Shown here one piece after another: positions 13,017-32,319 of a stretch of DNA of 64,000 bases. Position numbers and translations under genes: made by a program. This DNA comes from Lentzea atacamensis. Its GTDB lineage: Bacteria > Actinomycetota > Actinomycetes > Mycobacteriales > Pseudonocardiaceae. The stretch lies in the NCBI RefSeq assembly GCF_003269295.1, contig NZ_QLTT01000001.1:19635-83634 (forward strand). The letters run 5' to 3'. Position 1 is the first letter of the stretch, and the number at the start of each line of letters is the position of its first letter. Below the pieces are notes generated by a model, which worked only from the letters and a program-made list of their open reading frames with translations, made no database searches and had not been told where the DNA came from.

Positions 13017-13985
13017 ATGACCGAGAACCACCGGATCACGCGCCGCAGCCTGCTCGCGGGCACCGCCGGGGCGCTCGTCGCCGGACACCTCGCCACCCCT
13101 GCCACCGCGGCCGCCGGAGTGGACGGCTTCGCGAGCGTGTCCGCGCACGGCCTCAACACGACCACCGGCGGCGCGGGCGGTCAAGTGGTCACCGCCACCA
13201 CGTCCGAGCAATTCCTCGACTACATCGACACCGTCGGAACGCTGATCATCCAGGTGTCCGGCACCATCACCATCTCCAGCAAGCAGGGCGTGCGGCCGAA
13301 CAAGACGGTCATCGGCCTCGGCACATCCGCCGTGATCAACGGAGGTGGGCTGGACCTCTACCGGTCGTACAACGTGATCGTGCGCAATCTCCGCTTCACC
13401 AACGCCGAGGACGACGCGGTCAACATCGGCCAGAACTCGCACCACATCTGGGTCGACCACAACGAGTTCGCGGGAGCGGTCGACGGAGCGGTCGACGTCG
13501 TGCGCGGCGCCGAATACGTGACGGTGTCCTGGAACTGGTTCCGCGGCACCGACAAGTCCATGCTGCTCGGCCACTCGGACGGCGCGTCGAGCACCGACAA
13601 AGGCCGCCTCAAGGTAAGCATCCACCACAACTTCTTCGACGGGTCACGCCAGCGGCATCCTCGCGTGCGGTTCGGCGAACCCGTGCACGTCTACAACAAC
13701 TACTTCCGCTCGAACGAGCTGTACGGTGTGGCGTCCACAATGGATGCCGGCGTGCTGGTGGAGGGCAACTACTTCGAGAACGTGCCGCACCCGGTGCTGG
13801 TCGGCTACGGCGACAGCGGGCCTGGCCGTGTCGTGGCGCGCAACAACATGTTCACGGGTTCAGGAACCCCGCAGACCGCGGGCATCGTGCAGGAGCCGCG
13901 AACGTACTACTCCTACTCCCTCGACGCCCCCGCGGACGTGCCGCGAATCGTCCGCGGGGGCGCGGGTGTCGGCAAGGTGGTTTGA
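13017..13985 (+). CDS. Tat-exported PL1 pectate lyase
   Basis: A 322-residue single-domain PL1 lyase. The N-terminus TRRSLLAGTAGALVAGHLA is a twin-arginine signal, so it is probably folded before export, unlike its neighbour. The beta-helix shows HHIWVDHNEFAG, VDVVRGAEYVTVSWNWF and SIHHNFFDGSRQRHPRVRF, with the calcium aspartates and the RHPRVR catalytic arginine segment. GGAG before the ATG is a good ribosome site. With the upstream CBM-containing lyase and the divergent PL9 enzyme it would give a complementary set for pectin breakdown. No uptake system or downstream uronate enzymes are in the window. Confidence 0.92.
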   Translation: MTENHRITRRSLLAGTAGALVAGHLATPATAAAGVDGFASVSAHGLNTTTGGAGGQVVTATTSEQFLDYIDTVGTLIIQVSGTITISSKQGVRPNKTVIGLGTSAVINGGGLDLYRSYNVIVRNLRFTNAEDDAVNIGQNSHHIWVDHNEFAGAVDGAVDVVRGAEYVTVSWNWFRGTDKSMLLGHSDGASSTDKGRLKVSIHHNFFDGSRQRHPRVRFGEPVHVYNNYFRSNELYGVASTMDAGVLVEGNYFENVPHPVLVGYGDSGPGRVVARNNMFTGSGTPQTAGIVQEPRTYYSYSLDAPADVPRIVRGGAGVGKVV

Positions 13986-14003
13986 GGTCGCCGACACCCG
14001 CGC
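13960..14003 (+). terminator. Hairpin at the end of the pectate lyase operon
   Basis: GCGCGGGTGTCGGC at 13960-13973 pairs perfectly with 13990-14003 across a 16-base loop that contains the stop codon of the PL1 gene. Its position at the end of the two-gene operon supports a terminator role. Confidence 0.6.
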
Positions 14004-14066
14004 AGCGGTATGGCGACGCGTTCGACGCTGTGTTCGAGGCGGAGGAACTGCGTGTGATTGCGAGTG

Positions 14067-14603
14067 CGCGGTGTGGAACCGGACGATCAGTGAGTCGAGT
14101 CGCGGGTCGTTGCGGGTGGTGGCCACGATGTCGTTGAGCTGATCCATCTGCTTGCCGGACAACGCCCGCCGGTTGCTGGGCTGGCGCCGCGGTTTGGGGA
14201 CTTTGGCGGCGGGGTTGGCGCGTTCGTCGATGAGGTCGTCGTTGACGGCGTGCCGGTAGAGGCAGCGCAGTGCGGCGATGAGGTGCTCGGCGGCGGAGTT
14301 GCCGTTGCGGGTGTTACGTCGGACGGTCAGATTGGCCTTGATGTGCTGGACCAGCCGCTGGATGTCGGTCGGGGTCCGGTCGCTGAGCGAGATGTCCGCC
14401 CACTGGTCCAGCACGCGATTCCAGTACGGCGTGTAGGCGCGGCGAGTGCCATCGCTGACGGCCGCGGCCACGACCGGGATGTACTCGCCGAAGGTCGGAG
14501 CCGGCGGTTTCACCGCGTTGAGCAGGTCCTCGGCTGTCACGCCCATCCGGTCGAGGACCAGACGGGCGGCGTCGAGCTCTGCCTGAGTGGGTGCGCCGGT
14601 CAT
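14067..14603 (-). pseudogene. Tyrosine recombinase/integrase, C-terminally truncated
   Basis: About 179 residues of a phage-type integrase remain. They include the N-terminal SAM-like core-binding domain (FGEYIPVVAAAVSDGTRRAY, then TPYWNRVLDQWADI and AEHLIAALRCLYRHAV) and the start of the catalytic domain (ALSGKQMDQLNDIVATTRN, then DPRLDSLIVRFHT). The catalytic R-H-R-Y residues are missing because similarity ends near 14067 and the frame then runs antisense into the pectate lyase. The ATG overlaps the stop of an AbrB-type gene (ATGA), a pairing common in actinobacterial integrated elements. It marks the remnant of an excised or deleted element. Confidence 0.78.
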
Positions 14604-15692: not shown

Positions 15693-16405
15693 CCGGCCGC
15701 GCGGCTCACATCCGGATCGCGACCAGTCCGTGCTTCCAACGCCTGCTCGCGCTGACCCCAGCCACCTGGCGCAACCGCGCCACCGGTCACCCGTCACCCG
15801 ATCCCTGCTCACCCTTGACCACTGATCAGCTCGGACTTGCTCGCCCAGGTGTGCCGTCCCCGAGCGAAACTCGAACTTTCGCACTGTCAACACGACTCCG
15901 ACGCGCCCTCGCTGATCCGCGGTATCTGACCACGTGCCGCCGCGCGCATGCCCGCGGAGCTGAGCCGTCTGTTGTGCCTTGAGCGGGACTGGTGGCGCCC
16001 AGCGCGGCAGGCGCCGATGCAACACCGGCGCAACCGCTGATCTCGAAGATTTCGCCGCTGACCTGCGATCACCTGGCTCACCCCTTCGGTCGATATTCGA
16101 CCTTGTTCAACTGTGGACGTTGATTGCACGCGGGTGTGACCATCGCGGAAATAGGTAAACTTTCGCGTCGAAAGTTTACCTATTGAATTCACCCAATTGC
16201 AGAATATGATCCACATCACTGCAACGGATTGATGATTCTTGGCTAATCTTCGATGGTGAGGTTGCTGCGACCGGCTGCTCATTGATGCGGAAGTCGCGTG
16301 GCTCCTGGGGGTTTGTGCTGGCCTGATGTGGATTTCGTCGGCCTCGCTTCGGCGTGCCGTCGCCGCTCAGCCAGTGCGAAAGCGAGTTCTTCTTGGGGGA
16401 TTGAC
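15693..16405. other. Intergenic region without recognisable gene
   Basis: About 700 bases between the hydrolase fragment and the radical SAM gene. Reading frames here look like shadows and match no family I know. The last 300 bases are clearly richer in A and T than the surroundings. They contain the perfect inverted repeat at 16150-16184 and presumably the promoter of the downstream operon. Confidence 0.5.
16150..16184. promoter_or_regulatory. Perfect 16-bp inverted repeat upstream of the biosynthetic operon
   Basis: AATAGGTAAACTTTCG at 16150-16165 is followed by a three-base loop and its exact reverse complement at 16169-16184. The element is AT-rich in a GC-rich genome and lies about 220 bases before the probable start of the radical SAM gene. 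No T tract follows, so an operator or a transcript leader structure is as likely as a terminator. Confidence 0.6.
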
Positions 16406-17554
16406 TTGGTTAACGCGCATCGTGGTGGTGCCGAGCGCACGTCTGAGGCGCAGGCATTGCCCGTCACGATCAAGCCCGACAGGACGCTGCGAGCGAAGAT
16501 CACGGACTCCTGCGGACTGACGTGTACTTTCTGCCACAACGAGGGGACACCGGTCTCCGTGGACAACCGTGGGCGGGGCGGCGGTGAAGGCAGTCGCACG
16601 TTCGTCACGCTCGGGAGGTCTGGTCGTTCGTCGATCTATGCGAACCGCAACGGAGTCGGCTTCCTCGCGTCGACGATGCGTGCGGATGACGAGCTGCGCG
16701 ACGCTTTGACCGTGATGGGGCGCGGCATGGAGCTGGACGAGCTCCACCTCACCGGTGGTGAGCCGACGCTGCACCCCGCCGTCGCGGAGCTGGTGGCGCT
16801 GGGGGCTGAAGCCGGCTTCCGGGTGTGCATGACCTCCAACGGTGAGAACGGGGAGCGTGTCCTGGCCCGCTGCGCGGAGGCGGGTCTCGACCGCATCAAC
16901 TTGAGCATTTTCGGCACCACGCCGGAGGAGCTCGCCGACGTTCAGGAAAGCAGATTCCGTGACATCGGGCTCGCTGCTCGGAAAATCGACGCTCTCGAAC
17001 GCACGATCGAGACGGCGCTGCAAAACGGGGTCAAGGTCAGCGCGAACATCGTCGTGCCGAACGGTGCCCACATCCCGCGTGTGCACCGGCTGTTCGAACG
17101 ATATTCGGACAAGCTCTCGATCCGGTTGCTGAACTCGCTCAGCGATGGAATGGACTCCATCGGGGCCATCAACCAGGTTCTGGACGAGCTCGGCGCGGTG
17201 CCGGTCGCGCATCACATGACGGCAGGCGTCTCCGGCTACCGCACTGAATACGCACTACCGAGTGGCCGGGTCGTCTACTTCAAGAAGATCCGGCCCACCA
17301 GGCTTTCCGTCACCTGCTCCACGTGCCGCTTCCGTGATCCCTCCACCTGTGAGGAGGGCTATTACGGGCTCCGCCTGTACCGGTCCGCAGAGGGCGGCTA
17401 TCTCGTGGGCGTCTGCATTCAGCGGATGGACCTGTGCCTGCCCGTGGAGGAGTTCGTGACGAGCAGTCTGGCGAGCGAGGTCCGGGAGTTGCGCGACCGC
17501 GAGCTCGCCAACCCCGACGAGGTGCTCCGCCATCTGGCCGGCGAATCCGCTTGA
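16406..17554 (+). CDS. Radical SAM enzyme, MoaA-like with C-terminal cysteine cluster
   Basis: The cluster-binding motif CGLTCTFCHNEG gives C36, C40 and C43 of a CxxxCxxC [4Fe-4S] site. LHLTGGEPTLHP is the SAM-binding GGE region. Near the C-terminus CSTCRFRDPSTCEEGYYGLR, with further cysteines in GVCIQRMDLC, recalls the auxiliary-cluster domain of MoaA-type enzymes. The frame is open from 16298, but TTG at 16406 follows GGGGGA by five bases and is my preferred start (382 residues). The enzyme would generate a 5'-deoxyadenosyl radical to modify a small molecule or sugar/nucleotide. It is the first gene of a twelve-gene operon rich in sugar enzymes. The substrate cannot be read from sequence. 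Confidence 0.85.
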   Translation: MVNAHRGGAERTSEAQALPVTIKPDRTLRAKITDSCGLTCTFCHNEGTPVSVDNRGRGGGEGSRTFVTLGRSGRSSIYANRNGVGFLASTMRADDELRDALTVMGRGMELDELHLTGGEPTLHPAVAELVALGAEAGFRVCMTSNGENGERVLARCAEAGLDRINLSIFGTTPEELADVQESRFRDIGLAARKIDALERTIETALQNGVKVSANIVVPNGAHIPRVHRLFERYSDKLSIRLLNSLSDGMDSIGAINQVLDELGAVPVAHHMTAGVSGYRTEYALPSGRVVYFKKIRPTRLSVTCSTCRFRDPSTCEEGYYGLRLYRSAEGGYLVGVCIQRMDLCLPVEEFVTSSLASEVRELRDRELANPDEVLRHLAGESA

Positions 17555-17581
17555 GCTCGACATCCTGAGAGGAAACCGTTC

Positions 17582-18937
17582 ATGTTCGCGCACGAGATCG
17601 CCGTCGTGATCCTCGAGTACAACCGGCACCACCACCTCGACCTGATCCTGGCGAGGCTGGCCGAGCAGGATGTCACACCGGAGAGGTTCCGTGTCATCGT
17701 TGTCGACAACGGCAGCGCTGAGCCGCTGCGCCGTGTCGTCGACGAGTACGCCTCCAAGCTGTCGACCACCTACCTCCGGCTCGAGACGAACGCGGGCCGG
17801 GCGAAGGCGAGGAACATCGGCATAGAGGCCGTCACGGAGCCGGCGATGCTCATCCTCGACGGCGACACCCTGCCGGATCGGGATCTCGTGCGGCGCCACC
17901 TCGACGTGCTCGCTGATCCCGCCGTCGCGGTGAGCCTCGGCGCGCGGCGTGAACACCGGATCAGGACGTTGACGACGCCCTCGCCTCTCATGGGCAGCTC
18001 GTTGTCGACGTTCTCCGCACTGCACGACACCGCACAGCGCGACCTGAGGATCCCGGACATCGAGCAGCCGGTGATCCAGGACAACTTCGACCGGATCGGC
18101 TACTTTTTCCTGTACACGCACAACGTGGCCGTCCGGACCGAGGTCGTCGCCGCTTCGGGCGGGTTCAACGAGGACCTGGACGGCTGGGGCCTGGAGGACC
18201 TCGAGTTCGGGTTCCGGATCCGCGAGGTGTTGTCGGACGGGCAGGTGATGACCTGGTCTCCGCAGGCGGGATCCGCGCACATCCCGCACCTGCGGGACTT
18301 CAACGACAACTTCGGGGAACTCAAGCAGAACCAGACGAAACTGCTCGAGACCTACCGGTCCTTCCACTGGGAGGGGCATCGGTTCGCCTCGCCACTGCTG
18401 GAGTGCCTGCGCATCATCATGATCGAGAGGTTCGCCGAAGCTCTCGGCGTCGACGACGTGCAGCCTGAACTGCCGGAGATCGAGCAGTGGGTCGGAGCTC
18501 TCGAACCGGGTGACACCTGGTTGCTCGGCCTGGGGCGGCTGGGTGGCTGGCGCGACGTCGCCGGGGAGCTGCGTTCGTCCCTCGTGGACTGGCGCGACCG
18601 AGGAGTGCCGAGCTTCTGCGGTACTCAGTTCCTGCGCGACGACCGCTCGTTGCGCAACGTCGTGAACGTCGACGTCTGGCGTGCCCTGCCGTGGCACCAC
18701 GTGTCCGAAGCACTCGCCGAGGCGCGCAGGGTCGCGGAACATCCGGTGTTCGTGGCGACCGCTTCGCATGACGAGCGGTTCGCCGGGCTCGAGCTCGGCA
18801 GGGGGCTCGACGAGTCCGTCCCGCGGTTCGTCGAGGATGCGGAGTGGCTCGCCTCGGCCATCCGCGACCTCGGTCTCGACTGCGAGACGACGCGAACTCC
18901 CGACGCTGTCGCGGTGCGGGTGCGGGAGCGCGCGTGA
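17582..18937 (+). CDS. Family 2 glycosyltransferase with C-terminal extension
   Basis: A 451-residue protein. Residues 1-250 form a GT-A fold: VVILEYNRHHHLDLIL, VIVVDNGSAEPL, ETNAGRAKARNIGIEAV and the metal-binding DGD at 93-95 in LILDGDTLPDRD. LDGWGLEDLEFGFRI corresponds to the acceptor-side ED motif of chondroitin polymerase-like GT2 enzymes. The last 170 residues have no recognised domain and may bind the acceptor. GAGAGGAAA precedes the ATG. It lies 27 bases after the radical SAM gene and overlaps the transporter gene by GTGA. It probably adds a sugar to the product's core. Confidence 0.85.
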   Translation: MFAHEIAVVILEYNRHHHLDLILARLAEQDVTPERFRVIVVDNGSAEPLRRVVDEYASKLSTTYLRLETNAGRAKARNIGIEAVTEPAMLILDGDTLPDRDLVRRHLDVLADPAVAVSLGARREHRIRTLTTPSPLMGSSLSTFSALHDTAQRDLRIPDIEQPVIQDNFDRIGYFFLYTHNVAVRTEVVAASGGFNEDLDGWGLEDLEFGFRIREVLSDGQVMTWSPQAGSAHIPHLRDFNDNFGELKQNQTKLLETYRSFHWEGHRFASPLLECLRIIMIERFAEALGVDDVQPELPEIEQWVGALEPGDTWLLGLGRLGGWRDVAGELRSSLVDWRDRGVPSFCGTQFLRDDRSLRNVVNVDVWRALPWHHVSEALAEARRVAEHPVFVATASHDERFAGLELGRGLDESVPRFVEDAEWLASAIRDLGLDCETTRTPDAVAVRVRERA

Positions 18938-20154
18938 CGGCAGCGATCACGTCCGCCACGAGGAGGTCGTGGCCGTTCTACGTGGCGGCCTGGGTGGACT
19001 CGTTGGGGGCGGGACTGTTCCTGCCCGTTTCGATGCTCTACTTCATCCGCGTGGTGGGCTTGCCCGAGTGGCAGGTGGGCACGTTCATCTCCTTGTCGGG
19101 TGTGGTCGCGCTCCTGGTGCCCGCTCTGGTGGGCGCCGTGATCGACCGGGTCGGGCCGTTGCGGATCATCGTCGTGGGCCAGGTCCTGCAAGCCCTGGGC
19201 ACCGCGGCTTACCTGCTGGTCGACGGTCCACTCGGCGTGTTCGTGGTGACCACGGCGTGCGCGGTCGGCCAGCGGGTGTTCTGGTCGTGCTTCTTCGGCC
19301 TCGGCGCGCAGCTGGCCGGCGACGGGCCGAAGGAGAAGTGGTTCTCCATCGCCTCCAGCTCCCAGGCCGCCGGCGCCGGTGTCGGTGGCCTGATGGCGGC
19401 GTTCCTGTTCGTGGCCAACAGTACGGCGAGCTACGTGCTGCTGATCCTGCTCAACGCGGCGAGTTTCGCGGTGTCCGCCTTGTTGATGCTCGCGGTCCGC
19501 GGTGCGGCGAGCACCTCGCCCGGCCCGTCCACTGAGGACGCTGCCACCGGTGGTTACCGCGCGGTGCTGCGGGACCGGCGCTATCTCCTGATCATCGTGC
19601 TCGGCACGGTGCTGGCGGTGCCGAGCACGTTCTTCGCGTCGGGGCTGCCGGTCTACCTGAACCAGGAGCTGCACGCGCCCTCGTGGATCAGCGGTGCGCT
19701 GCTGACGATGGTGACGGTGTTGATGGTCGCGTTGCAGGCGTACGCCGTGCACCTCGTGCGCGGGCTGCGTCGCACCACCACCCTCGCGATCTGCGCGTTC
19801 ATGTGGGCCGGTTGGGCAACGGCAATGGCCGCCGCGCCGGCCCTGGGCGGCTCGTCCCTGGTGGTGTTCCTGTTCGCGGCGACCGGGATCTACGTCCTCG
19901 CGGACCTGCTCCACGGCCCGATCGTCAACGCGCTCGTGGAGCACATCGCGCCGGTGCGGATGAAGGGTCGCTACCTGGCTGTTTTCCAGTACTCGTACAA
20001 CCTCGCGGCGATCGTGGCGCCGCTGCTGGTGGCCGCGTTCGCATGGGGCGCGGCGGCACCGTGGCTGATCTTCGTCGCGCTCAGCGGCGGATCCGGCCTG
20101 CTCTTCCTGAAGCTCGAATTGGGGGAACGCGATGTGGAGGAAGACCGAAGTTGA
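18934..20154 (+). CDS. MFS transporter (first of two in the cluster)
   Basis: A 406-residue major facilitator superfamily protein with about twelve hydrophobic segments and typical loops such as GAVIDRVGPLRIIVVGQV between helices 2 and 3. The start GTG overlaps the glycosyltransferase stop (GTGA), so I prefer it to the longer frame from 18844. Transporters of this kind in biosynthetic clusters usually export the product and give self-protection. That role here is inferred from position. The 3' end overlaps the next gene by 23 bases. Confidence 0.82.
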   Translation: MTAAITSATRRSWPFYVAAWVDSLGAGLFLPVSMLYFIRVVGLPEWQVGTFISLSGVVALLVPALVGAVIDRVGPLRIIVVGQVLQALGTAAYLLVDGPLGVFVVTTACAVGQRVFWSCFFGLGAQLAGDGPKEKWFSIASSSQAAGAGVGGLMAAFLFVANSTASYVLLILLNAASFAVSALLMLAVRGAASTSPGPSTEDAATGGYRAVLRDRRYLLIIVLGTVLAVPSTFFASGLPVYLNQELHAPSWISGALLTMVTVLMVALQAYAVHLVRGLRRTTTLAICAFMWAGWATAMAAAPALGGSSLVVFLFAATGIYVLADLLHGPIVNALVEHIAPVRMKGRYLAVFQYSYNLAAIVAPLLVAAFAWGAAAPWLIFVALSGGSGLLFLKLELGERDVEEDRS

Positions 20155-21454
20155 ACAGGGCAGCAAGGCGTTGGTGTACTGCACCTTCGACGGTGTCGCC
20201 AACCTCTACCACGGTATCGGGACGCAGACCAGGTACCTGATCTCGTGCCTGGGGAGCAGCGGTGCCGAGCTGGTCGACGCCATCGGCGAGTTTGACGTGC
20301 ACCTGCTCGTACCGGATGCGAGCTATTCCCGTCCTGGCTACGCGATCAACGAGAGCTTGCTGGCCGAGAACCGGGAGAAGATCGCGAATGCGGGCGTGAC
20401 GTTGTGGGAGCTTGCCCACGACGACTCCCGGCTGTTCCACATCGCAAAATGGCACCAGCTGTGCGCGGAAGCGGCGAAGGTCGTGCGACAGCTCGTCGAC
20501 AGGTATGACAAGGTGCTGGTGGCGGCAGTGGACGCGATCTTCTGCGTGCTCGCCGATCACCTGGACCGGGAGCTGGAGCCGAGCCAGTGGGAGCGAACCC
20601 AGCTGGTGTACGCGCTCTACAGCAGTTCCCGGATCCCGGGCACGTCGCACACCCCCGGCAGGGACGAGGGCGAGGCCGCGTGCGTGGCGAGGGCGAACAC
20701 CGACGCGAGGGTGTTCCTCGCCGATGTCGGCAGCTACTTCTCCCGTCACCTGGTCGAGGACTTCGGACTCGACCCGACCCGGCTGCTGCCGTTCACCCAG
20801 GCGCTGAGCCTCGGCGATCCCGAGCTGACGCGCCGCGACCGCGCCGAAGCCCTCGCCGAGGTCACGTCCTGGGGGATTCCCACCGACCGGCCGATCGTAC
20901 TGTCCCTGGGACGGGCTGACCCGATCAAGGGACTCGACCGTGCCATCCGCGCGGTCACGCCGTTGCGAGACCGCATCCACTTCGTGCTGATCGCGGTTCC
21001 CTACACGCAGGACGACCCGGAGATTGCGAAGTACCGGGCCATGCTCGCGGAGTCCGGCCTGCGGCACACGTTCGTGACGCAGTTCGACCGCGGTCTGCCG
21101 CGCAGTCTGTGCTCTCTCGACGAGACGGTTGCCGTGTTGTCCGCGTCGTTGGGCGAGCCGTGCGGTCAGGTCCCGCAGGAGGCTGCGCTCTGGGCTGATG
21201 GTGGCGGCCCAGTCGTGATCGTGCCGGACGAAGGAGGGCTTGCGGCGCAGATCGTGCCCGATGTGACAGGTCTGGTGTTCCCGCAGGGCGACATCCCGGC
21301 GATGACCGAGAAGGTCGAGATCGTGCTCGACCTCCCGAGCAGCGACCGGGTGCGGATGTGTGCGGCCGCAGTCGAGAAGGTCCGCGCGGAGCGGGACTTC
21401 ACCAGGTCGTTGAGGGAGTTCCTCGACGCCGCGTGGGCGGTGGACCGTGCCTGA
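20132..21454 (+). CDS. GT4-like glycosyltransferase
   Basis: A 440-residue GT-B fold protein. The N-terminal domain has VANLYHGIGTQTRYLISCL, the glycine-rich loop seen in GT4 enzymes. The C-terminal domain has PIVLSLGRADPIKGLDRAIR, then SASLGEPCGQVPQEAALW and the GGLAAQIV segment in the place of the nucleotide-binding E-x7-E region. It would transfer a sugar from a nucleotide donor with retention of configuration. It overlaps the preceding MFS gene by 23 bases and the epimerase gene by eight. With the GT2 enzyme this gives at least two glycosylation steps. Confidence 0.8.
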   Translation: MWRKTEVEQGSKALVYCTFDGVANLYHGIGTQTRYLISCLGSSGAELVDAIGEFDVHLLVPDASYSRPGYAINESLLAENREKIANAGVTLWELAHDDSRLFHIAKWHQLCAEAAKVVRQLVDRYDKVLVAAVDAIFCVLADHLDRELEPSQWERTQLVYALYSSSRIPGTSHTPGRDEGEAACVARANTDARVFLADVGSYFSRHLVEDFGLDPTRLLPFTQALSLGDPELTRRDRAEALAEVTSWGIPTDRPIVLSLGRADPIKGLDRAIRAVTPLRDRIHFVLIAVPYTQDDPEIAKYRAMLAESGLRHTFVTQFDRGLPRSLCSLDETVAVLSASLGEPCGQVPQEAALWADGGGPVVIVPDEGGLAAQIVPDVTGLVFPQGDIPAMTEKVEIVLDLPSSDRVRMCAAAVEKVRAERDFTRSLREFLDAAWAVDRA

Positions 21455-22415
21455 GTCGACCGTGCTCGTCGTGGGAGGCGCCGGGTTCATCGGCTCCAAC
21501 CTCGTGCGGTACTGGCTGCGGAAGCACCCGCGGGACCGGGTGGTGTCGCTCACGAGTGGAAGGCGCGTGAGCCCAGGCCACACCGGAGCGCAGGACGTCG
21601 TCTGCAACCTCGGCGAGCCGGACGGGCTGAAGCAGGTGCTGACCGAGCAGTCGGTAGACATCGTGATCAACTGCGGCGGTTGGTCCGACAACGGACGGGC
21701 GGTGCGCGACCCCTTGGCCTGTTTCGAGGCGAACGTCGCGCGTTGCATGGCCGTGCTCGAGGCTTGCCGGACAACCGGTGTGCGCCACTACCACCAGGTG
21801 TCCTCCGCCGAGGTCTACGGCGACCTGTCCGTTGCCGCCGGCGTCGACGAGTCGGCCCCGCTGCGGCCGCTGACCCCGTACAGCTCCACCAAGGCCGCTG
21901 CCGACCAGCTGGCGTTGTCGTACGGCCACACCTACGGGCTGGCTGTGACGATCACCCTGTCCTCCAACAACTACGGCCCAGCGCAACTCCCGGAGAAGGT
22001 CATCCCCAGGTTCGTCACGAGAGCGTTGCTCGGGCTGACGCTGCCGGTGTTCGAGTCGCCCGGATCGAGCCGCGAATGGCTGCACGTGCGGGATCACTGC
22101 CAAGCGATCGACCGGATCATCTCGGCCGGCACACCAGGAGAGCGTTACAACGTGGGTGGTGGCGTGAACGCGGGAGCGCACGAGATCGCCGACGCCGTGC
22201 TCGACTTCCTGGGGCTGCCTGCTGACCGCAAGGTCACGGTTCCGGCCCGGCCGGCACTTCTGAACCGCACCGCGGTCGACTCGACGAAGGTGCGCACCGA
22301 GGTGGGGTGGAGGCCGGAGAAGGACTTCGCGGCAGGCCTCAAGGAAACGATCCAATGGTACGTCGACAACCGGGACTGGTGGCTTCCGCACGTCGAGGCA
22401 CAGGGGGAGAAATGA
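21447..22415 (+). CDS. NAD-dependent sugar-nucleotide epimerase/dehydratase
   Basis: A 322-residue extended short-chain dehydrogenase. The Rossmann motif GGAGFIGSN lies at the N-terminus. HQVSSAEVYGD and PYSSTKAAADQLAL carry the catalytic serine and the YxxxK pair. SSNNYGPAQLPEKVIPRFV and EWLHVRDHCQAI are hallmark stretches of the dTDP-glucose 4,6-dehydratase branch. It would oxidise a nucleotide sugar at C4 and then dehydrate or epimerise it. The next gene is a sugar-phosphate nucleotidyltransferase overlapping by ATGA, so the two probably make one activated sugar. Whether the sugar is CDP-, UDP- or dTDP-linked cannot be decided from this gene. Confidence 0.88.
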   Translation: MPESTVLVVGGAGFIGSNLVRYWLRKHPRDRVVSLTSGRRVSPGHTGAQDVVCNLGEPDGLKQVLTEQSVDIVINCGGWSDNGRAVRDPLACFEANVARCMAVLEACRTTGVRHYHQVSSAEVYGDLSVAAGVDESAPLRPLTPYSSTKAAADQLALSYGHTYGLAVTITLSSNNYGPAQLPEKVIPRFVTRALLGLTLPVFESPGSSREWLHVRDHCQAIDRIISAGTPGERYNVGGGVNAGAHEIADAVLDFLGLPADRKVTVPARPALLNRTAVDSTKVRTEVGWRPEKDFAAGLKETIQWYVDNRDWWLPHVEAQGEK

Positions 22416-23233
22416 AGGTAGTTCTGTTTTGCGGGGGCTACGGCATGCGGATGCGCAGCAGTGCGCACGACGACGTCCCCAAGCCGATGCAACTCGTGGG
22501 ACCCCGGCCGCTGTTGTGGCACATCATGCGGTACTACGCCCACTTCGGACACACTGACTTCATCCTCTGTCTCGGCTACGGCGCACAACACGTGAAGGAC
22601 TACTTCCTGCACTATCGCGAGACCTCGTCGAACGACTTCGTCTTGCAAGACGGTGAAGTCGAGCTGTTCTCGACCGACATCAGCGACTGGAGGATCACGT
22701 TCGCCGACACCGGGGTGGAAACCCCCATCGGGGAGAGGCTGCGCCGGGTCAGGCACCACCTCGGTGATGACGAGGTGTTCCTCGCCAACTACTCCGACGT
22801 GCTGAGCGACGCGCCGTTGGACATCATGATCGATCGCCTGGTGGCAAGCGACAACGCGGCGTCCATGCTCGTGGTGCCACCACAGTCCTCGTTCCACTGC
22901 GTCCAGCTCGACGAGGCCTCCACGGTTACCTCGCTGGCGCTCGTGAGCGAACTTCCGGTGTGGGAGAACGGCGGCTTCTTCGTGCTGAGGCAGGAGATCT
23001 TCGACAAGCTCCCGGTGGGTGGAGATCTCGTGGACGACGTGTGCGGTGCGCTCGTGCGGGAAGGCAGACTGCTCGCACACCGGCATCGCGGGTTCTGGCA
23101 GTCGGCGGACACGGTCAAGGAGCGCATCCGGCTCGAGGCCTCGTACGCCTCGGGTGAGCGGCCCTGGATGATGTGGGAACACGAGCCGAGTCCGGCGCCG
23201 GTGCCCCTGTTGGAGGAGGCCTGGTCGTCATGA
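22412..23233 (+). CDS. Sugar-1-phosphate nucleotidyltransferase (cytidylyltransferase-like)
   Basis: A 273-residue nucleotidyltransferase. VVLFCGGYGMRMR is the signature nucleotide-binding loop and PKPMQLVGPRPLLWHIMRYY the lysine-containing second motif. ANYSDVLSD and WENGGFFVLRQEI complete the fold. FCGGYG and HIMRYYAHFGHTDFILCLGY look closest to glucose-1-phosphate cytidylyltransferases (RfbF/AscA type), which would give a CDP-sugar. The assignment of CTP over dTTP or UTP is by resemblance only. It is coupled to the epimerase upstream and to the PIG-L deacetylase downstream by ATGA overlaps. Confidence 0.82.
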   Translation: MKVVLFCGGYGMRMRSSAHDDVPKPMQLVGPRPLLWHIMRYYAHFGHTDFILCLGYGAQHVKDYFLHYRETSSNDFVLQDGEVELFSTDISDWRITFADTGVETPIGERLRRVRHHLGDDEVFLANYSDVLSDAPLDIMIDRLVASDNAASMLVVPPQSSFHCVQLDEASTVTSLALVSELPVWENGGFFVLRQEIFDKLPVGGDLVDDVCGALVREGRLLAHRHRGFWQSADTVKERIRLEASYASGERPWMMWEHEPSPAPVPLLEEAWSS

Positions 23234-23877
23234 TGCGCTTCGACCTCGGCCAACCGGACACGCTGGTGCTGCTCGGTGCTCACTGCGACGACATCGCGAT
23301 CGGCGCAGGAGGTCTGCTGCTCTCACTGTGCAGGCGTTGGCCCGGCATCGAGGTGAGAGCCCTCGTTCTGACGGGCATGGGTACCGAACGCGAGATGGAG
23401 GAGCAGAAGGCGCTGGCTTCGCTGTGCCCTCGCGCCAGCCTCGACCTCACCGTGCTCGACCTGCCGGACGGCCGGATGCCTTCGCGGTGGGAGGAGGTCA
23501 AATCTGCACTGGAGGTGGTGAGGTCCGAGATCGCGGAGCAGGCGGTGGTGATCGGGCCGCACCGGGGCGATGCCCACCAGGACCACCGCTGTCTCGCTGA
23601 GATCGTGCCGAGCGTGTTCCGCGGCCACTTGCTGCTCGGCTACGAGATCGTCAAGTGGGACGCCGATCTGGGCCAGCCGTCGGTCTTCTTCCCGCTCGAC
23701 GACGAGGTCGCGGAGGAGAAGGTCGAGGTGCTGCACGCGCACTACCGCTCCCAGGTCGGGCGGCAGTGGTTCGACCGGGAGGCATTCCTCGGTCTGGCCC
23801 GCCTGCGCGGAGTGCAGAGCCGCAGCCGGTACGCGGAGGCCTTCTACACCGACAAGGTGGTTCTCGGTGGCGGTTGA
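23230..23877 (+). CDS. PIG-L family N-deacetylase
   Basis: A 215-residue metal-dependent deacetylase of the PIG-L/LmbE family. The N-terminal motif is GAHCDDIAIGAGG, with H18, D20 and D21 as metal and catalytic residues; the usual proline of AHPDD is a cysteine here. GPHRGDAHQDHR gives the third zinc histidine. Family members remove acetyl groups from N-acetylglucosamine-containing compounds such as mycothiol precursors or teicoplanin-type glycosides. In this operon it would expose an amine on an amino sugar. The ATG overlaps the nucleotidyltransferase stop (ATGA). Confidence 0.88.
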   Translation: MMRFDLGQPDTLVLLGAHCDDIAIGAGGLLLSLCRRWPGIEVRALVLTGMGTEREMEEQKALASLCPRASLDLTVLDLPDGRMPSRWEEVKSALEVVRSEIAEQAVVIGPHRGDAHQDHRCLAEIVPSVFRGHLLLGYEIVKWDADLGQPSVFFPLDDEVAEEKVEVLHAHYRSQVGRQWFDREAFLGLARLRGVQSRSRYAEAFYTDKVVLGGG

Positions 23878-25036
23878 CGTGACCTCGAAGACCTCGCCGA
23901 GGTGGTTCGGCCCGGCACGTTGGGCGGTGGCCGCGGTCTTCGGGTTCAACGGGTTCCAGTTCAGCACCTGGACCAGCCGCGTGCCCGCGATCGCCACGCA
24001 GGTGGAAGCCGACGCGGGAGGACTCGGTATCGCGCTGACGGTCTCCGCGGTGGGCATGCTCGTCGCAACCCCGTTCGCGGGCCGTGTCCGCGCGTGGTTG
24101 GGGCCGCGGTGGTCCGTGCTGGTTCCGGCCTCGGGCGCGGCGTTGTTGCTGCCGGCCGTCGGGCTGGTGCGGACCGTGACCCAGTTGGCCTGTGTCCTGT
24201 TCGTCCTGAGCGGGTTCGTCGGCATCATGAACGTCGCGAGCAACCTCAGCGGCCTGGCGATCGCGCGGGACCTCAACCGGCCCGTGATGCCGTTCTTCTA
24301 CGGCGTCGCCGGCCTTGCCGGGTTCGGTGGTGCCGGAGCCTCGTCCTTCCTGGCGCACGCCGGGTGGTCGCCCTTGGAACACTTCACTGCGGCTTCCGCG
24401 TTCTCGCTGCTCCTGTTGGCGTGCTCAGCCCGGTTCCTACCGGTGTTCGACGAGCCGGACCGGGCTGAACACGTGCGAGGCGGGCGTGCACGCGTGCAGA
24501 GACGGGTGCTGGGCTTCGCGGTCGCGGCATTCGTGATCACCTTGGCGGAGTCGACCGCGTACGACTGGTTCGGACTGCTGTTGACCCGTGAACGCGGTGT
24601 GACCGAAGCCGCGACGGCGTCAGGACTGGCGGTGCTGTCACTCGTCGTCGCGGGACTGCGGCTGGTGGGCGAGCGCGTCGAGGCGGTCGTACCCACCAGG
24701 GTCCTGCTGATCGGCGGCGCGGCGCTCGCCGCGTCCGGAATGGTCCTGATCGCCACAAACGCGTTGCCCGGCTTCGTGGTCGCCGCATACGCGGTGGTCG
24801 GTGCAGGTGTCGCCTACCTCTATCCGGCGGTGGTCGGGCAGATCAACTCCGGTACCGCGACGCAGACGAACATGTCGGTCGTCGCATGGGCCAACTCGCT
24901 CGGTTACGCGGTCGGGCCGATCTTGGTGGGCACGCTCGCCGAGCGGCTTTCCATCACAACCGGTGTGCTTGTGGTGGCCTGCGTGCTCGTGGCAGGAATA
25001 TCGATCACATTACCCATGACGGCGCGGAGGCGTTGA
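23867..25036 (+). CDS. MFS transporter (second of the cluster)
   Basis: A 389-residue protein with about twelve hydrophobic helices (FGFNGFQFSTWTSRVPAIAT, then LSGFVGIMNVASNLSGLAIA and YAVVGAGVAYLYPAVV). FSTWTSRVP and the general pattern resemble the fucose/YbjJ-type MFS branch rather than the drug-efflux type of the first transporter. GTG at 23867 is chosen because it overlaps the PIG-L stop; GTG at 23879 is possible. It could import a precursor or export product. The substrate is unknown. Confidence 0.8.
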   Translation: MAVDVTSKTSPRWFGPARWAVAAVFGFNGFQFSTWTSRVPAIATQVEADAGGLGIALTVSAVGMLVATPFAGRVRAWLGPRWSVLVPASGAALLLPAVGLVRTVTQLACVLFVLSGFVGIMNVASNLSGLAIARDLNRPVMPFFYGVAGLAGFGGAGASSFLAHAGWSPLEHFTAASAFSLLLLACSARFLPVFDEPDRAEHVRGGRARVQRRVLGFAVAAFVITLAESTAYDWFGLLLTRERGVTEAATASGLAVLSLVVAGLRLVGERVEAVVPTRVLLIGGAALAASGMVLIATNALPGFVVAAYAVVGAGVAYLYPAVVGQINSGTATQTNMSVVAWANSLGYAVGPILVGTLAERLSITTGVLVVACVLVAGISITLPMTARRR

Positions 25037-25037
25037 G

Positions 25038-25538
25038 ATGGTGCACGAACGTCGTAGCAGCGTGCTGGACCTGGTGACTGGTCGCTATCTGACGCCGAGG
25101 GGCGCGGAAGTGCCCGTGGACCGGATCGAGCGGCGGGATGGAGCGCTGTTCTTCGCTGTTCCCGAGGCTGACAACCCCCGGCTTCAGACGCTCGAGTGCT
25201 GGGTGCTGCCAAGCCGCCGGCTGCGCGTCTGCCGTTGGACGCTTGCGCCGGACGCCACGGTGACCGATGCGGACTTCGACTACTACGTCGACTTCTGCCA
25301 GGTCGAGTCCGTTGCGGATCGTTTCGTGATGGTGGACGACTACGTGGACATTAAGGTGTGGCAGGGACGACGGCTCGCTGTCGACGATGTGGACGAGCTC
25401 ATTGCAGCCCTCGGCGTCGGCTTCATCGAGCCTCGCGAGGCTCAAGTCGCTGTGGAGACCGCATTCGAGGTCGCGGTCGAGCTCACGGGCTTGGAGTTGT
25501 CCGTGCTCACGTGGCTCAAGCAGGAGGGGTGGAATTGA
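25038..25538 (+). CDS. DUF402 phosphohydrolase (FomD-like)
   Basis: A 166-residue protein of the DUF402 family. DFDYYVDFCQVESVADRFVM, DDYVDIKVWQGRRL and VDDVDELIAAL correspond to the conserved core with aspartates that bind metal. Known DUF402 enzymes hydrolyse nucleoside di- or triphosphates, and FomD of fosfomycin biosynthesis releases CMP from a cytidylylated phosphonate. In this operon it lies between a cytidylyltransferase-like gene and a cytidine deaminase, so a CMP-releasing role is an attractive inference. The start follows the MFS stop by one base, and TTGA overlaps link it to the deaminase gene. Confidence 0.78.
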   Translation: MVHERRSSVLDLVTGRYLTPRGAEVPVDRIERRDGALFFAVPEADNPRLQTLECWVLPSRRLRVCRWTLAPDATVTDADFDYYVDFCQVESVADRFVMVDDYVDIKVWQGRRLAVDDVDELIAALGVGFIEPREAQVAVETAFEVAVELTGLELSVLTWLKQEGWN

Positions 25539-25942
25539 CCACGTCAGCGGAACTGCTGGACAGCTTGCGTGCGGTGTCGGTGGACACCGCGCGGAACGCG
25601 TACGTGCCTTATTCCGGCTTCCTGGTGGGCGCGGCGGCGAGCACGCCTGGTGGTGACATCTACCGCGGGTGCAACATCGAGAACGCGTCCTTCGGCATGA
25701 CGCTGTGCGCGGAAGCGTCTCTTATCGGTTCGCTGGTGGCACATGGGGGCAAGGGTATCGAGGTGATCTGCTGCCGGACGGCGGACGGCACGTTTCTTGC
25801 GCCGTGTGGCCGGTGCCGTCAGATGATCATGGAGATCGGCGGGCCGGACTGCCTGGTGGACCTGGGCAACGAGTTGGTGCCGATCCGCACCCTGCTGCCG
25901 CACGCGTTCACGGGACGCGATATGAACGTTGAAACGAGCTAG
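25535..25942 (+). CDS. Cytidine deaminase
   Basis: A 135-residue homotetrameric-type cytidine deaminase. LCAEASL supplies C58 and the catalytic glutamate E60, and PCGRCRQ supplies zinc cysteines C91 and C94. NAYVPYSGFLVGAA and GCNIENASFGMTLCAE are standard substrate-binding stretches. I chose TTG at 25535, which overlaps the DUF402 stop and has AGGAGGGG at proper distance. It would convert cytidine to uridine. Within this operon it may recycle cytidine from CMP release or detoxify a cytosine nucleoside, as blasticidin S deaminase does. A general salvage role cannot be excluded. Confidence 0.85.
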   Translation: MTTSAELLDSLRAVSVDTARNAYVPYSGFLVGAAASTPGGDIYRGCNIENASFGMTLCAEASLIGSLVAHGGKGIEVICCRTADGTFLAPCGRCRQMIMEIGGPDCLVDLGNELVPIRTLLPHAFTGRDMNVETS

Positions 25943-25956
25943 GGGACCAGGCCATC

Positions 25957-26490
25957 ATGACGATCGAGTACGAGGCCAAGGTGCTGGGAATCGATCCGCC
26001 GGCGACGGAAGCGCTCATCCTGCGACACGGTGGCGAGAAGCTGGGAGATCGGCTGCAGCGCCGTTACGTCTACGACCTAAAGCCTGGAGACCAGTCGCGG
26101 TGGGTTCGGCTGCGCGACACCGGTGATGTGATCACCCTGGCGGTCAAGGAGATCCGCTCGGACGCGATCGACGGCACGTCCGAGACGGAAGTCACCGTCG
26201 ACGACTTCGAGAAGACGAACGCCCTCTTGAACAAGCTCGGCTATCGGCCGAAGTCCTACCAGGAGAACCGCCGAGTCAGCTTCCGACTCGGGCATGCGCG
26301 ACTCGAGATCGACCACTGGCCATTGATACCGCCGTACCTGGAGATCGAAGCGGACTCGGTCGCCGGTGTGAAGGAAGCCGCAACCGTGCTCGGCTACGAC
26401 GAAGCCGACCTCACAGGCGAGAACACGCTCCAGGTGTACGCGCGATACGGGATCGACTTGGGCACCCTCGCCGAGGTGAGGTTTGAGTGA
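25957..26490 (+). CDS. CYTH domain protein (class IV adenylate cyclase / triphosphatase fold)
   Basis: A 177-residue CYTH protein. EYEAKV near the N-terminus is the ExExK signature. VRLRDTGDVITLAVKEI and ENRRVSFRLGHARLEID provide the alternating basic and acidic strands of the triphosphate tunnel, and YLEIEADSVAGV closes it. Members act on triphosphates (thiamine triphosphatase, polyphosphatase) or as CyaB-type cyclases. Its presence in a sugar-nucleotide operon suggests nucleotide triphosphate hydrolysis or a regulatory role, but the substrate is not predictable. It overlaps the HAD gene by eight bases. Confidence 0.82.
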   Translation: MTIEYEAKVLGIDPPATEALILRHGGEKLGDRLQRRYVYDLKPGDQSRWVRLRDTGDVITLAVKEIRSDAIDGTSETEVTVDDFEKTNALLNKLGYRPKSYQENRRVSFRLGHARLEIDHWPLIPPYLEIEADSVAGVKEAATVLGYDEADLTGENTLQVYARYGIDLGTLAEVRFE

Positions 26491-27271
26491 CCTCCCACGG
26501 CTGATCGCCACCGATCTCGACGGCACCCTCCTGACGAGCGGTCACGGCGTCTCCAACAGGACGCGGTGCTCGCTTGACGCGCTCAGGGCTGCCGGCGTCA
26601 CGGTTCTGCTCGTGACGGCAAGGGCTCCGCGCAGCGTGGACGAGATCGCGAGGCAAGCCGGCCACAGCTCGATCGTCGTGTGCTGCAACGGAGCAGTCGT
26701 CTACGACGTGGCCAGCCGAACCGTTGGTCATACGGCGCTCATCCCGCGGGAGACGGTCCTGGCAGTGGGGCAGCGGTTGCGCAGGGTGCTTCCCGGCGCT
26801 CTGCTCGCGGTTGAGACTGGCCGGAGCATGCGGGCCCAGCCGGGCTTCGGTGTGCGATGGGACGACGCCCACGTCGACGTCGACACCCTCGATCTCGGCC
26901 CAGCGGCGAAGATGTTCGTCCGCAGCGAGGGCTTGGATCTCGACCAACTGCTTTCCGCAGTGCGGAGCGTTGTCGGCGATCTTGTGTCGTGCAGCCACTC
27001 GGGAGGCCCCGGTTTCGTTGAGCTGACCGCGCTCGACGTGTCGAAGGTGAACGCGGTCAAGGCCGTGTGCGCATCCTTGGGCATCCACCGCTCGGACGTC
27101 GTCGCCTTCGGCGACATGCCGAACGATCTCGAACTGCTTCGGTGGGCCGGTCGGGCATGGGCAATGGGCAACGCGCACCCGTCATTGCTGCGAGAGTTCC
27201 CGGTCACGGCGTCGAACGATGATGACGGGGTGGCGAAAGCGCTGGAATCGCTTCTGCCCGTGCCGAGCTGA
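26483..27271 (+). CDS. HAD-superfamily phosphatase (Cof type)
   Basis: A 262-residue Cof/IIB-type HAD hydrolase. ATDLDGTLL contains the nucleophile and acid aspartates, VLLVTARAPRSV is motif II, KVNAVKAVC carries the motif III lysine and VAFGDMPNDLELL is motif IV with the metal aspartates. The TTG start at 26483 lies inside the CYTH gene end. It would dephosphorylate a sugar phosphate or a phosphorylated product, a usual last step in aminoglycoside-like pathways. It is the last gene of the twelve-gene run. A terminator is not obvious before the sterol desaturase remnant. Confidence 0.85.
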   Translation: MSDLPRLIATDLDGTLLTSGHGVSNRTRCSLDALRAAGVTVLLVTARAPRSVDEIARQAGHSSIVVCCNGAVVYDVASRTVGHTALIPRETVLAVGQRLRRVLPGALLAVETGRSMRAQPGFGVRWDDAHVDVDTLDLGPAAKMFVRSEGLDLDQLLSAVRSVVGDLVSCSHSGGPGFVELTALDVSKVNAVKAVCASLGIHRSDVVAFGDMPNDLELLRWAGRAWAMGNAHPSLLREFPVTASNDDDGVAKALESLLPVPS

Positions 27272-29680: not shown

Positions 29681-31048
29681 CTACCAGTAGATGGCGATGA
29701 TCTCGGCGTCGATCAGGTTCTCCGCAACGCGTTCTTGAGGCTGAGAAAGGTTGCTGGTCGCCGGGTTCACCGGTGTTCCGTTGATCTCAAGCCCGTTCCG
29801 GTGACACGCCGTCTGACGGAGGTGCGCGTGCACCTCCGCGGACAGGGGCCTGCCGGCCAGCTTCTCCACGTACTCCCTGATCGGTTTGAAGGCACCGGAC
29901 GCGCTGCCGGCGGAGCGGAACGCGTGCTGGTTCTCGACGGCGAGGACCGACAGAGCGATCGCGTCGTCGGAGCTGACAGCGAAGGCGAGGCCCTCGGCGA
30001 GGAGCTCTCCATAGGTGGTCAGCGCCGCTGTGCGGAGATCGTCCGTCCTGGAGCCGGTGCCGGAGGTGCCGGAGAACGCACCGACCGCCACCGAGCCGAA
30101 CTCGGCGATCTTCTGGCTCAGGCTGGGGTCGATCCGGTTCAGCGAGTCTCCCAGCTTTAGCGGGTTCCACGTGGCGCTGATCCCTCGCCCGTTCAACCGG
30201 CAGAGCACGCGATATCGGGACTGGGTGAACAGGATCCGCCGGATGTCCTTCCAGTACAGATCCCGCTGGGTGTCTCCGACGAGATAGATCGGCTGAGCGT
30301 AGTAGTCAGACCCAGCTCCGAGGTCGTCGTGGACGCTCCGGTGGACGATCTTGAGGCCGTGCTCGGTGTGCACGGCGACGTAGTCGACGACGCGGCACTT
30401 CAGCGGGATGAGGTTGACCATCATCTTCTCGATCAGGTTGTTGATCGAGATGAGGCCGTCCAGCACCTCGGCTGATCCGAACTGGGCTCGTAGCTCGGCG
30501 TTCTCGTCGGCGAGCTCCTTCAGCGTGGCGAGGATGTTGCTGAGCTGGAAGATCGCGTCCGTGTCCAGCTCGACCTCAATCTCGGCGAGCTGGCCGCGGT
30601 CGAGGTCGGTGGCGGGCACGATCCAGTACTTCTCGGCGGGGTCGCGCTCGTGCGCGAGGATGCGCAACGCATCGTTGCGGGACGGCCGACTGGTGGTGGG
30701 CAGGTTGGCGCGCAACGACATGTCGTTCTTCTCGAGGTCCCACAGGCGTTTGACCAACGCCTGGACGGTGGCCTTGCTGACCACCTGCGCGTTGGAACTG
30801 CGAGACGACTCGAACCGCGAGCCCAGACGGGCTTTGAACGGTGCGAAGCCCGCCTCGGCCTGTCCGTTCACCTCTCCCTTGTACGCGGAACCATTGTTGT
30901 CCGTGAACTCGTGGGGGATCGCACCGTCCCGTGAGGACAGCAGGCTGGTGACACTGACCTCGTCGAGGTAGATGAACTCGCGCAGCTCGTTCTTCACCTG
31001 CTGCGTCTGTGCGTCGGCTTTCGCCTCGCCGCGCCGCTTCGTCGTCAT
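29681..31048 (-). CDS. DUF6414-like protein coupled to AAA+ ATPase
   Basis: A 455-residue soluble protein without signal peptide or clear transmembrane helix. The opening ELREFIYLDEVSVTSLLSSR and DGAIPHEFTDN is the pattern I associate with DUF6414. A charged, probably helical middle part (DAIFQLSNILATLKELADEN, residues about 165-220) could form a coiled coil. No catalytic motif is visible. The ATG overlaps the stop of the upstream ATPase gene (ATGA), so the two products are made together. A substrate adaptor, effector or regulator of the ATPase is a reasonable inference, and a defence role is speculative. A strong terminator follows its stop. Confidence 0.65.
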   Translation of the reverse strand: MTTKRRGEAKADAQTQQVKNELREFIYLDEVSVTSLLSSRDGAIPHEFTDNNGSAYKGEVNGQAEAGFAPFKARLGSRFESSRSSNAQVVSKATVQALVKRLWDLEKNDMSLRANLPTTSRPSRNDALRILAHERDPAEKYWIVPATDLDRGQLAEIEVELDTDAIFQLSNILATLKELADENAELRAQFGSAEVLDGLISINNLIEKMMVNLIPLKCRVVDYVAVHTEHGLKIVHRSVHDDLGAGSDYYAQPIYLVGDTQRDLYWKDIRRILFTQSRYRVLCRLNGRGISATWNPLKLGDSLNRIDPSLSQKIAEFGSVAVGAFSGTSGTGSRTDDLRTAALTTYGELLAEGLAFAVSSDDAIALSVLAVENQHAFRSAGSASGAFKPIREYVEKLAGRPLSAEVHAHLRQTACHRNGLEINGTPVNPATSNLSQPQERVAENLIDAEIIAIYW

Positions 31049-32319
31049 GTTGCGGTGTCCGCCTTCGGGGTAGTGGCCGGCCGGCTGGAGGCGATCAGGT
31101 TGCGGCGCTTGGCGGCCTGCTCGAACCCGGCTAGGTAGTCCTCCGTGGTGATCGCCTTACGGTTGTCCTTGACGGCGAACAACGCGGCATCGCTCCAGAT
31201 GGCCGTGAGCTCGGCCGGTGACCAGCCGGACGTCCGGTCCGCCATCGCGCCGTGCGGAAGGTCGCCGGATGTGGCGAGCTTGCGCGCACTCGTCACGAGG
31301 ATGGCCTCGCGGTCGTCTCTGGAGGGGTTCGGGAAGTGGATCTCCCAGTCGAACCGTCCTGGTCGGCGGAGTGCAACATCGATGTCCTGAGGGCGATTCG
31401 TCGTCGCGATCACGATGACGTTGTCGGACTTGTCGAAGCCGTCCATCAAGGTCAGGAACTGGCCGACGAGGCGACGCGACGACTCGTGCGACTCGTCGCC
31501 GCGTTGCGGTGCGACGCTGTCGATCTCGTCGAAGAAGATGATCGCCCGCGGTTGGGAGCGAGCGTCTTCGAAGATCGACCTGATCACGTCCTCGCTCTCG
31601 CCGACGTACTTGCTGATGATCTCCGGGCCGCTGATCTTGTAGAACACCGCGTCGGCCTGCTGGGCGATGATCCGCCCGAGCAGCGTCTAACCGGTGCCCG
31701 AGGGTCCTGTGAACAGGACTCCCTTGATGGCGCGAGCGCCGATCATCTGCAACTCGTCGTGGTAGTGCAGGGGTAGTTCGATCAGGTCCTTGACTCGGTC
31801 CTTGACCTCCTCGTACCCGCCGAAGTCGTCGTAGGTGAGCGATCCGTCAGGGGTCTCGCGGAGCTTGTCGACGTCGAAGGCGTCGCCGAGGAAGATCTCG
31901 TGCTGCCGGATGGGCTTGTCGGCGAGCAGACGCGTGATGCCCAGCCTGTCGGTGCCCTCGACCGTGTTTCCCATGACGACCTCGAAGGCGGTCGGCAGCG
32001 GAACGGTCCTGAGGTTGCCGTTGATGTTGACGATCGCCTCGTCGGCGAGCACGGATCGAACGATCCCGATCCACGGGGCCTCCGGCCACAGAGCTTGTGG
32101 CGCGCGATCGGCGTAGTCGAGGTCCGGGGTGACGAGAACGAGGTCGCCCGCGGCCAGCGGGTCTTCATCGCCTTCGTACTCCTGCAGCGTGAACAGGTAC
32201 CCGGTCGGCAGTTCGAGATAGACCAGGAGTTGGTCGTCAACGTGCTTCACACGCGCGACCGCACGGCGAAGATCGTTCTGCAAAGCTCTAGCACCTTCCG
32301 TCCGAGCAGCAGGGACCAC
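31045..32319 (-). pseudogene. Cdc48/VCP-like AAA+ ATPase interrupted by TAG in Walker A
   Basis: One continuous frame of 425 codons. An N-terminal region of about 160 residues (an OB-like, beta-rich part) precedes FGGYEEVKDRVKDLIELPLH, the start of a classic AAA module. Walker A reads GPSGTG, then TAG (31687-31689), then TLLGR, so the stop replaces the lysine of GPxGTGKT. Downstream all other motifs are intact: AIIFFDEIDSVAP (Walker B), ATTNRPQDID (sensor 1) and RRPGRFD (arginine fingers). Both halves are in the same frame, so a single AAG-to-TAG change explains it. Outcomes could be a dead gene, a sequencing error, readthrough, or separate polypeptides, the second starting at GTG 31647. It is coupled to the DUF6414-like gene. 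Confidence 0.8.

What the first reader, a model, noticed from the sequence alone, without database searches (positions are those of the whole stretch)
16406..27271. Twelve-gene operon for an unknown glycosylated, amino-sugar-like metabolite
A radical SAM enzyme, two glycosyltransferases, an epimerase/dehydratase, a sugar-phosphate nucleotidyltransferase, a PIG-L deacetylase, DUF402, cytidine deaminase, CYTH, HAD phosphatase and two MFS transporters follow each other with overlaps. No PKS or NRPS is present. I know no described pathway with this set, so the product may be a new pseudo-oligosaccharide or nucleoside antibiotic.
Basis: partly seen in the sequence, partly recalled or inferred. Interest (0 to 1): 0.78.

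Follow-up and report, generated by a model that had tools for sequence, protein, structure and literature searches.

The report
Glycosylated-nucleoside gene cluster around radical-SAM/CYTH pair
This bacterium carries a rare twelve-gene operon that probably modifies a nucleotide by radical chemistry and decorates it with sugars to make an undescribed nucleoside-like compound, built around a two-enzyme pair that recurs on its own in many related bacteria.

Summary
In detail: twelve same-strand genes at 16406-27271 form one tightly packed operon. The radical SAM gene at one end and the CYTH (triphosphate-tunnel) gene near the other are, in relatives, a stand-alone adjacent pair: in 78 of the 80 named loci kept, CYTH lies within 108 bp on the same strand, and in 30 of 31 further loci it is also adjacent. 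Here nine other genes lie between them. The one exception, in another genome of the family, holds the same long operon in the same order without the nucleotidyltransferase and PIG-L genes, which therefore look accessory. The radical SAM enzyme meets no curated family cut-off; its nearest solved relatives include nucleoside/nucleotide enzymes (AbmM, MoaA, BlsE, viperin). With cytidine deaminase, DUF402, CYTH and HAD, this points to a modified, probably cytidine-derived, nucleotide that is glycosylated and exported, rather than a plain pseudo-oligosaccharide. It is not housekeeping (radical SAM gene in 6 of 394 class genomes, own included). The only held paper with both words 'radical SAM' and 'CYTH' is a phage paper. 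Substrate, chemistry and product are inferred, not shown. MIBiG could not be searched.

The parts
16150..16184 (.). 35-bp perfect inverted repeat (16-bp arms), possible operator, beside a promoter-like site at 16183-16210
   Evidence: only copy in the own genome with up to 3 mismatches; no inverted repeat with 8-bp arms found upstream of the L119 radical SAM gene
16406..17554 (+). radical SAM enzyme (CxxxCxxC with FCHNEG; C-terminal C-x2-C-x7-C...C motif); TTG start, alternative upstream start at 16298
17582..18937 (+). GT2 glycosyltransferase (WGxED motif) with an extra C-terminal region of about 200 aa without Pfam match
18934..20154 (+). MFS transporter 1
20132..21454 (+). GT4 glycosyltransferase
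21447..22415 (+). SDR epimerase/dehydratase, RmlB-like but SAEVYG where RmlB is recalled to have TDEVYG
22412..23233 (+). sugar-1-phosphate nucleotidyltransferase, closest to glucose-1-phosphate cytidylyltransferase; absent from L119
23230..23877 (+). PIG-L type de-N-acetylase with AHCDD and HxxDxHxDH motifs; absent from L119
23879..25036 (+). MFS transporter 2 (GTG start at 23879)
25038..25538 (+). DUF402 protein (nucleotide phosphatase family, recalled)
25535..25942 (+). cytidine deaminase (CAE, PCGRC motifs)
25957..26490 (+). CYTH triphosphate-tunnel protein, acidic/basic tunnel residues kept
26483..27271 (+). HAD Cof/IIB phosphatase

Best explanation
A biosynthetic operon for a glycosylated, nucleoside-derived secondary metabolite. 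Proposed order: (1) the radical SAM enzyme carries out a radical change on the ribose or base of a nucleotide, most likely a cytidine nucleotide; (2) CYTH, DUF402 and HAD remove phosphates from the tri-, di- and monophosphate forms, and may also keep the toxic triphosphate low; (3) the deaminase converts a cytosine base to uracil, or protects the producer; (4) GT2 and GT4 add one or more sugars whose donors are shaped by the epimerase and, in this genome but not in G466, by the nucleotidyltransferase and PIG-L; (5) two MFS pumps export it. Shown: gene content, order, co-occurrence, conserved motifs, fold relatives. Inferred: every substrate, reaction and the product. The cluster looks like an elaboration of a two-gene radical SAM/CYTH module in which the glycosylation and export genes sit between the two partners.
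Confidence: 0.52

Rival explanations
1. A pseudo-oligosaccharide or aminoglycoside-like product: the radical SAM enzyme acts on a sugar, GT4 and PIG-L build a glucosaminyl unit as in mycothiol- or neomycin-type pathways (recalled), and the nucleotide enzymes are salvage or housekeeping copies.
For: Two GTs, epimerase, nucleotidyltransferase and PIG-L; GT4 has weak similarity to MshA (22.9 bits); GT2 nearest to chondroitin polymerase; SpeY and DesII, recalled to act on sugar-type substrates, are in the fold lists.
Against: No cyclitol or aminotransferase gene is among the twelve. NTP and PIG-L are missing from the syntenic cluster, while CYTH, DUF402, CDA and HAD are kept. The usual partner of the radical SAM gene is CYTH.
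Confidence: 0.22
2. The radical SAM/CYTH pair is an antiviral or signalling nucleotide system (viperin-like chain terminator or a second messenger read by neighbouring HTH regulators), and the long operon is a diverged, exported version of it.
For: Viperin models match weakly (pVip 4.3e-13; NF038283 33.3 bits); patchy spread, 24 of 381 family genomes including its own; five loci with split or shortened copies (L149, L150, L151, L153, L154); HTH genes are the commonest neighbours, HTH_31 in 21 of 140, and NUDIX in 5 of 140.
Against: Viperin cut-off not met (33.3 against 180 bits). Neighbours show little defence signal: no PADLOC model at E<=1e-10 in more than 2 of 140. No tblastn hit in plasmids at 1e-30 or phages at 1e-10.
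Confidence: 0.13
3. A glycosylated RiPP or other peptide/cell-surface product made by the radical SAM enzyme.
For: Radical SAM peptide maturases (SuiB, SkfB) and PqqE appear among fold matches.
Against: No family of small ORFs recurred beside the pair in the clustering of called ORFs; ORFs under 70 aa were not called, so a short precursor could have been missed. CYTH has no role that I recall in such pathways.
Confidence: 0.06

Closest known systems
AbmM (albomycin, 4'-thionucleoside radical SAM enzyme; PDB 8wm2)
   Same: Best PDB profile match (5.3e-14); CxFCHNEG motif; C-terminal C-x2-C-..-C motif
   Different: About 20% identical; spacing C-x2-C-x7-C here against C-x2-C-x5-C; no PLP transaldolase or NRPS gene among the twelve; no CYTH partner mentioned in the albomycin section read
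4'-thiothymidine cluster thmA-C (Photorhabdus)
   Same: Very small set of a radical SAM gene plus a nucleoside triphosphatase gene
   Different: Has a nucleoside kinase, an NTPase not called CYTH in the paper (0 occurrences), and no glycosylation genes; sequence relation to ThmA not tested
MoaA GTP 3',8-cyclase and viperin
   Same: Fold relatives that act on NTPs
   Different: Far below curated cut-offs (81.4 of 325, 33.3 of 180 bits)
Blasticidin S cluster (BlsE)
   Same: Radical SAM fold relative acting on a cytosine glycoside
   Different: BlsE cut-off not met, 40.6 of 400 bits
Nucleoside glucosyltransferases NucGT, AvpGT
   Different: GT2 here is closer to chondroitin polymerase and has an extra C-terminal region
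Tunicamycin-type clusters (recalled)
   Same: Recalled gene types: radical SAM, epimerase, GT, PIG-L
   Different: Not compared by sequence here

Membership tests
MoaA GTP 3',8-cyclase | score above the curated NCBIfam cut-off | tested here: not met
   81.4 of 325.25, 63.5 of 284.05 and 59.7 of 231 bits
Viperin | score above the curated NCBIfam cut-off | tested here: not met
   33.3 of 180 bits
BlsE cytosylglucuronate decarboxylase | score above the curated NCBIfam cut-off | tested here: not met
   40.6 of 400 bits
AbmM-type sulfur-for-oxygen enzyme | sequence relatedness and CxFCHNEG motif | tested here: met
   alignment, E 5.3e-14; distant, about 20%
AbmM-type sulfur-for-oxygen enzyme | sulfur transfer from the FeS cluster to a nucleoside | not testable with these tools
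   needs enzymology
Radical SAM superfamily | CxxxCxxC and Pfam PF04055 | tested here: met
   64.7 bits, cut-off 29.5; C36, C40, C43 invariant in 56 rows
CYTH / triphosphate tunnel metalloenzymes | ExExK, basic residues and paired ExE of the tunnel; Pfam CYTH | tested here: met
   31 bits, cut-off 23.2; EYEAK, RLR, K64, ETE, EIE; R51, R53, K64, E76, E78, E129, E131 invariant and E4, E6, K8 at 90% or more in 45 rows
Class IV adenylate cyclase (CyaB) | score above the curated cut-off | tested here: not met
   25.6 of 57.95 bits
dTDP-glucose 4,6-dehydratase | curated cut-off; TDE catalytic motif (recalled) | tested here: not met
   264.8 of 365.1 bits; SAE in window and L119
Glucose-1-phosphate cytidylyltransferase | score above the curated cut-off | tested here: not met
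   186.4 of 300.25 bits; nearest solved structure is one
Cytidine deaminase | curated cut-off and CAE/PCxxC zinc site | tested here: met
   140.6 of 74 bits for one model, but 107.2 of 113.65 for another; motifs
AvpGT-type nucleoside glycosyltransferase | closest relationship to AvpGT among solved GT2 enzymes | tested here: inconclusive
Tunicamycin-type cluster | TunA-TunE homologues | not tested
   no reference sequences used

The most novel reading that the evidence does not exclude
The radical SAM/CYTH pair is an undescribed, widely scattered two-gene factory for a modified nucleoside triphosphate in Actinomycetota and Thermoactinomycetaceae, controlled by HTH/TPR regulators, and the window holds a rare elaboration in which the nucleotide is deaminated, glycosylated and exported as an antibiotic. 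The boldest form is ring-heteroatom exchange in the ribose, as in AbmM.
Probability: 0.33. Interest if true: 0.82.

Novelty: new variant of a known kind. Interest (0 to 1): 0.6.

Why it matters
If right, a simple gene-pair signature (this radical SAM family next to CYTH, present in 78 of the 80 loci examined of 136 found) marks many genomes that make an unknown nucleotide analogue, and the window and G466 clusters offer the easiest way to its structure because the product should be glycosylated and exported. Radical SAM nucleoside chemistry has given several unusual compounds, and the minimal pair is small enough to test in one heterologous experiment.

Tried and rejected
Housekeeping operon: rejected; strong radical SAM matches in 1 of 40 relatives (its own), 6 of 394 class genomes and 24 of 381 family genomes, all counts including its own. 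The long cluster: besides its own, GT2 matched at 57-73% in three of 390 family genomes and at 33% in two more; of these only G466 has the set; G535 and G595 carry the GT2 in different clusters, and the two 33% loci have no set either.

DUF402 as a tracer: 94 of 397 order genomes match including its own, but apart from its own copy none above 38% identity, so it found no further cluster (G466 was not in that sample as far as its handle shows).

Mobile origin: no match to the radical SAM protein in phages (1e-10) or plasmids (1e-30), or to GT2 in plasmids (1e-30). A recombinase-like ORF lies upstream; its link to the operon was not tested.

Defence island around the pair: little support. Known clusters: MIBiG not available. 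Paper searches: radical SAM, DUF402, deaminase, gene cluster, three of four terms (one unrelated paper); radical SAM, CYTH, nucleoside, gene cluster, three of four (110 papers, 20 listed, none of the 20 with CYTH); with CYTH domain and Streptomyces (none); radical SAM with CYTH as whole words (one phage paper, seen as a listing). The library lacks most subscription journals, and three AbmM/AbmG papers were not held. PDB code searches gave nothing useful.

GT2 C-terminal region: no Pfam match up to E 1 in three homologues; the model is of modest confidence there; a degenerate methyltransferase-like fold is only my impression.

Full report
What is there. Twelve + strand genes at 16406-27271 are packed with gaps of at most 27 bp and overlaps of 4-23 bp. 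The radical SAM protein meets no curated NCBIfam cut-off: MoaA, viperin and BlsE models all score far below. All 56 aligned relatives match the same three MoaA models, viperin and BlsE (cut-offs are shown there only for the window's own protein). The epimerase is RmlB-like but carries SAEVYG, and the nucleotidyltransferase is cytidylyltransferase-like but below cut-off. A 35-bp perfect palindrome at 16150-16184, single copy in the genome, next to a promoter-like site, may be the operator; promoter-like matches are only consensus hits.

The core is a pair. A genome-contig scan with the radical SAM protein gave 136 relatives, of which the best 80 were kept, at 51-60% identity, in many Actinomycetota genera and in Thermoactinomycetaceae. 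In 78 of these 80 a CYTH match lies within 108 bp on the same strand; the two misses are the Shimazuella loci. None of the 80 has a match (E<=1e-4) to GT2, either MFS, GT4, NTP, PIG-L, DUF402 or CDA in the DNA fetched, two have an epimerase match and two a HAD match; only 51 of 80 loci have their full 10-kb flanks, so more distant genes could be missed. Of 31 loci from later searches (L124-L154), 30 have CYTH adjacent; the other, L129, is the long cluster of G466. Radical SAM and CYTH distances correlate over 40 rows (r=0.68; 0 of 2000 permutations), which also reflects shared ancestry of the hosts. The neighbours of the pair vary; helix-turn-helix, HATPase, TPR and NUDIX genes are the commonest (140 of 150 selected ORFs scanned; examples). 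The PADLOC scan of the same 140 shows no defence model in more than two members.

The long form. GT2 found three other family genomes with strong matches. One, G466, holds the order radical SAM-GT2-MFS1-GT4-EPI-MFS2-DUF402-CDA-CYTH-HAD at 57-77% identity but without NTP and PIG-L; a UDP-sugar dehydrogenase-like gene follows HAD there (named from its sequence only). Window and G466 radical SAM proteins form their own branch (support 100/100) apart from the stand-alone ones; whether nested or sister depends on the root, which is not fixed. So the long cluster is rare: 2 of 381 family genomes by radical SAM, 1 of 384 class genomes by GT2. The direction of change, insertion between the pair or loss from a long ancestor, is not settled.

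Function. The radical SAM model (pLDDT 86) matches MoaA, BlsE, viperin and AbmM best or nearly best, though GDGT synthase and SuiB are as close as the latter two. By profile the first PDB match is AbmM, which shares CxFCHNEG and a C-terminal cysteine motif. AbmM is said to swap sulfur for ring oxygen using its FeS cluster (passages of PMC12691670). CYTH keeps its tunnel residues; its nearest solved relatives are CYTH/TTM proteins that I take to be archaeal from their names. A radical enzyme so regularly beside a triphosphate-binding enzyme most simply means an NTP-derived product. In the long form a deaminase, DUF402 and HAD fit nucleotide trimming, and the GTs glycosylation. GT2 resembles chondroitin polymerase most; AvpGT, a nucleoside 3'-O-glycosyltransferase (passages of PMC11959488), is third by Z, tied within 1 with several polysaccharide and teichoic acid enzymes. 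L120, another run of genes with this GT2, contains a ThyX-type gene, a second hint at nucleosides. The functions of DUF402 proteins and the RmlB catalytic motif are recalled.

Verdict. I rate the glycosylated-nucleoside reading at about one half, and the cluster as a new variant of a known kind, with a more novel core whose chemistry is unknown. Papers seen: PMC12691670 outline, one section and passages; PMC9032320 outline and its biosynthesis section; PMC11959488 passages; others only in listings.

Noticed in passing
window 11512-13005 and 13017-13985: Two adjacent secreted pectate-lyase-like proteins (named from the translation, not searched) just upstream, with a ricin-lectin/beta-helix-like protein at 9424-11139 on the other strand.
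   Followed up: no
window 13860-14603 (-): ORF that reads like the N-terminal part of a tyrosine recombinase (by eye), possibly a remnant; may mark an island edge near the operon.
   Followed up: no
window 16150-16184: 35-bp perfect palindrome, single copy in the genome, beside a promoter-like site; no regulator gene is inside the operon.
   Followed up: partly
window 17582-18937, residues about 250-451: GT2 has a conserved C-terminal region of about 200 aa without Pfam match, also in L119, L120 and L121.
   Followed up: partly
L120:11795-19976: A different same-strand run of genes with a 61% GT2 relative, 38% GT4, luciferase-like, TauD-like and ThyX-type genes.
   Followed up: partly
L121:8732-19992: A third region with a 57% GT2 relative, a PhyH-like ORF (by eye) and a carbamoyltransferase.
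   Followed up: partly
L149, L150, L151, L153, L154: Radical SAM and, in L151, CYTH genes appear split or shortened, suggesting repeated loss of the pair.
   Followed up: no
window 29681-31647 (-): A 455-aa protein of unknown type preceded by an AAA-type ATPase ORF (by eye) downstream of the operon.
   Followed up: no
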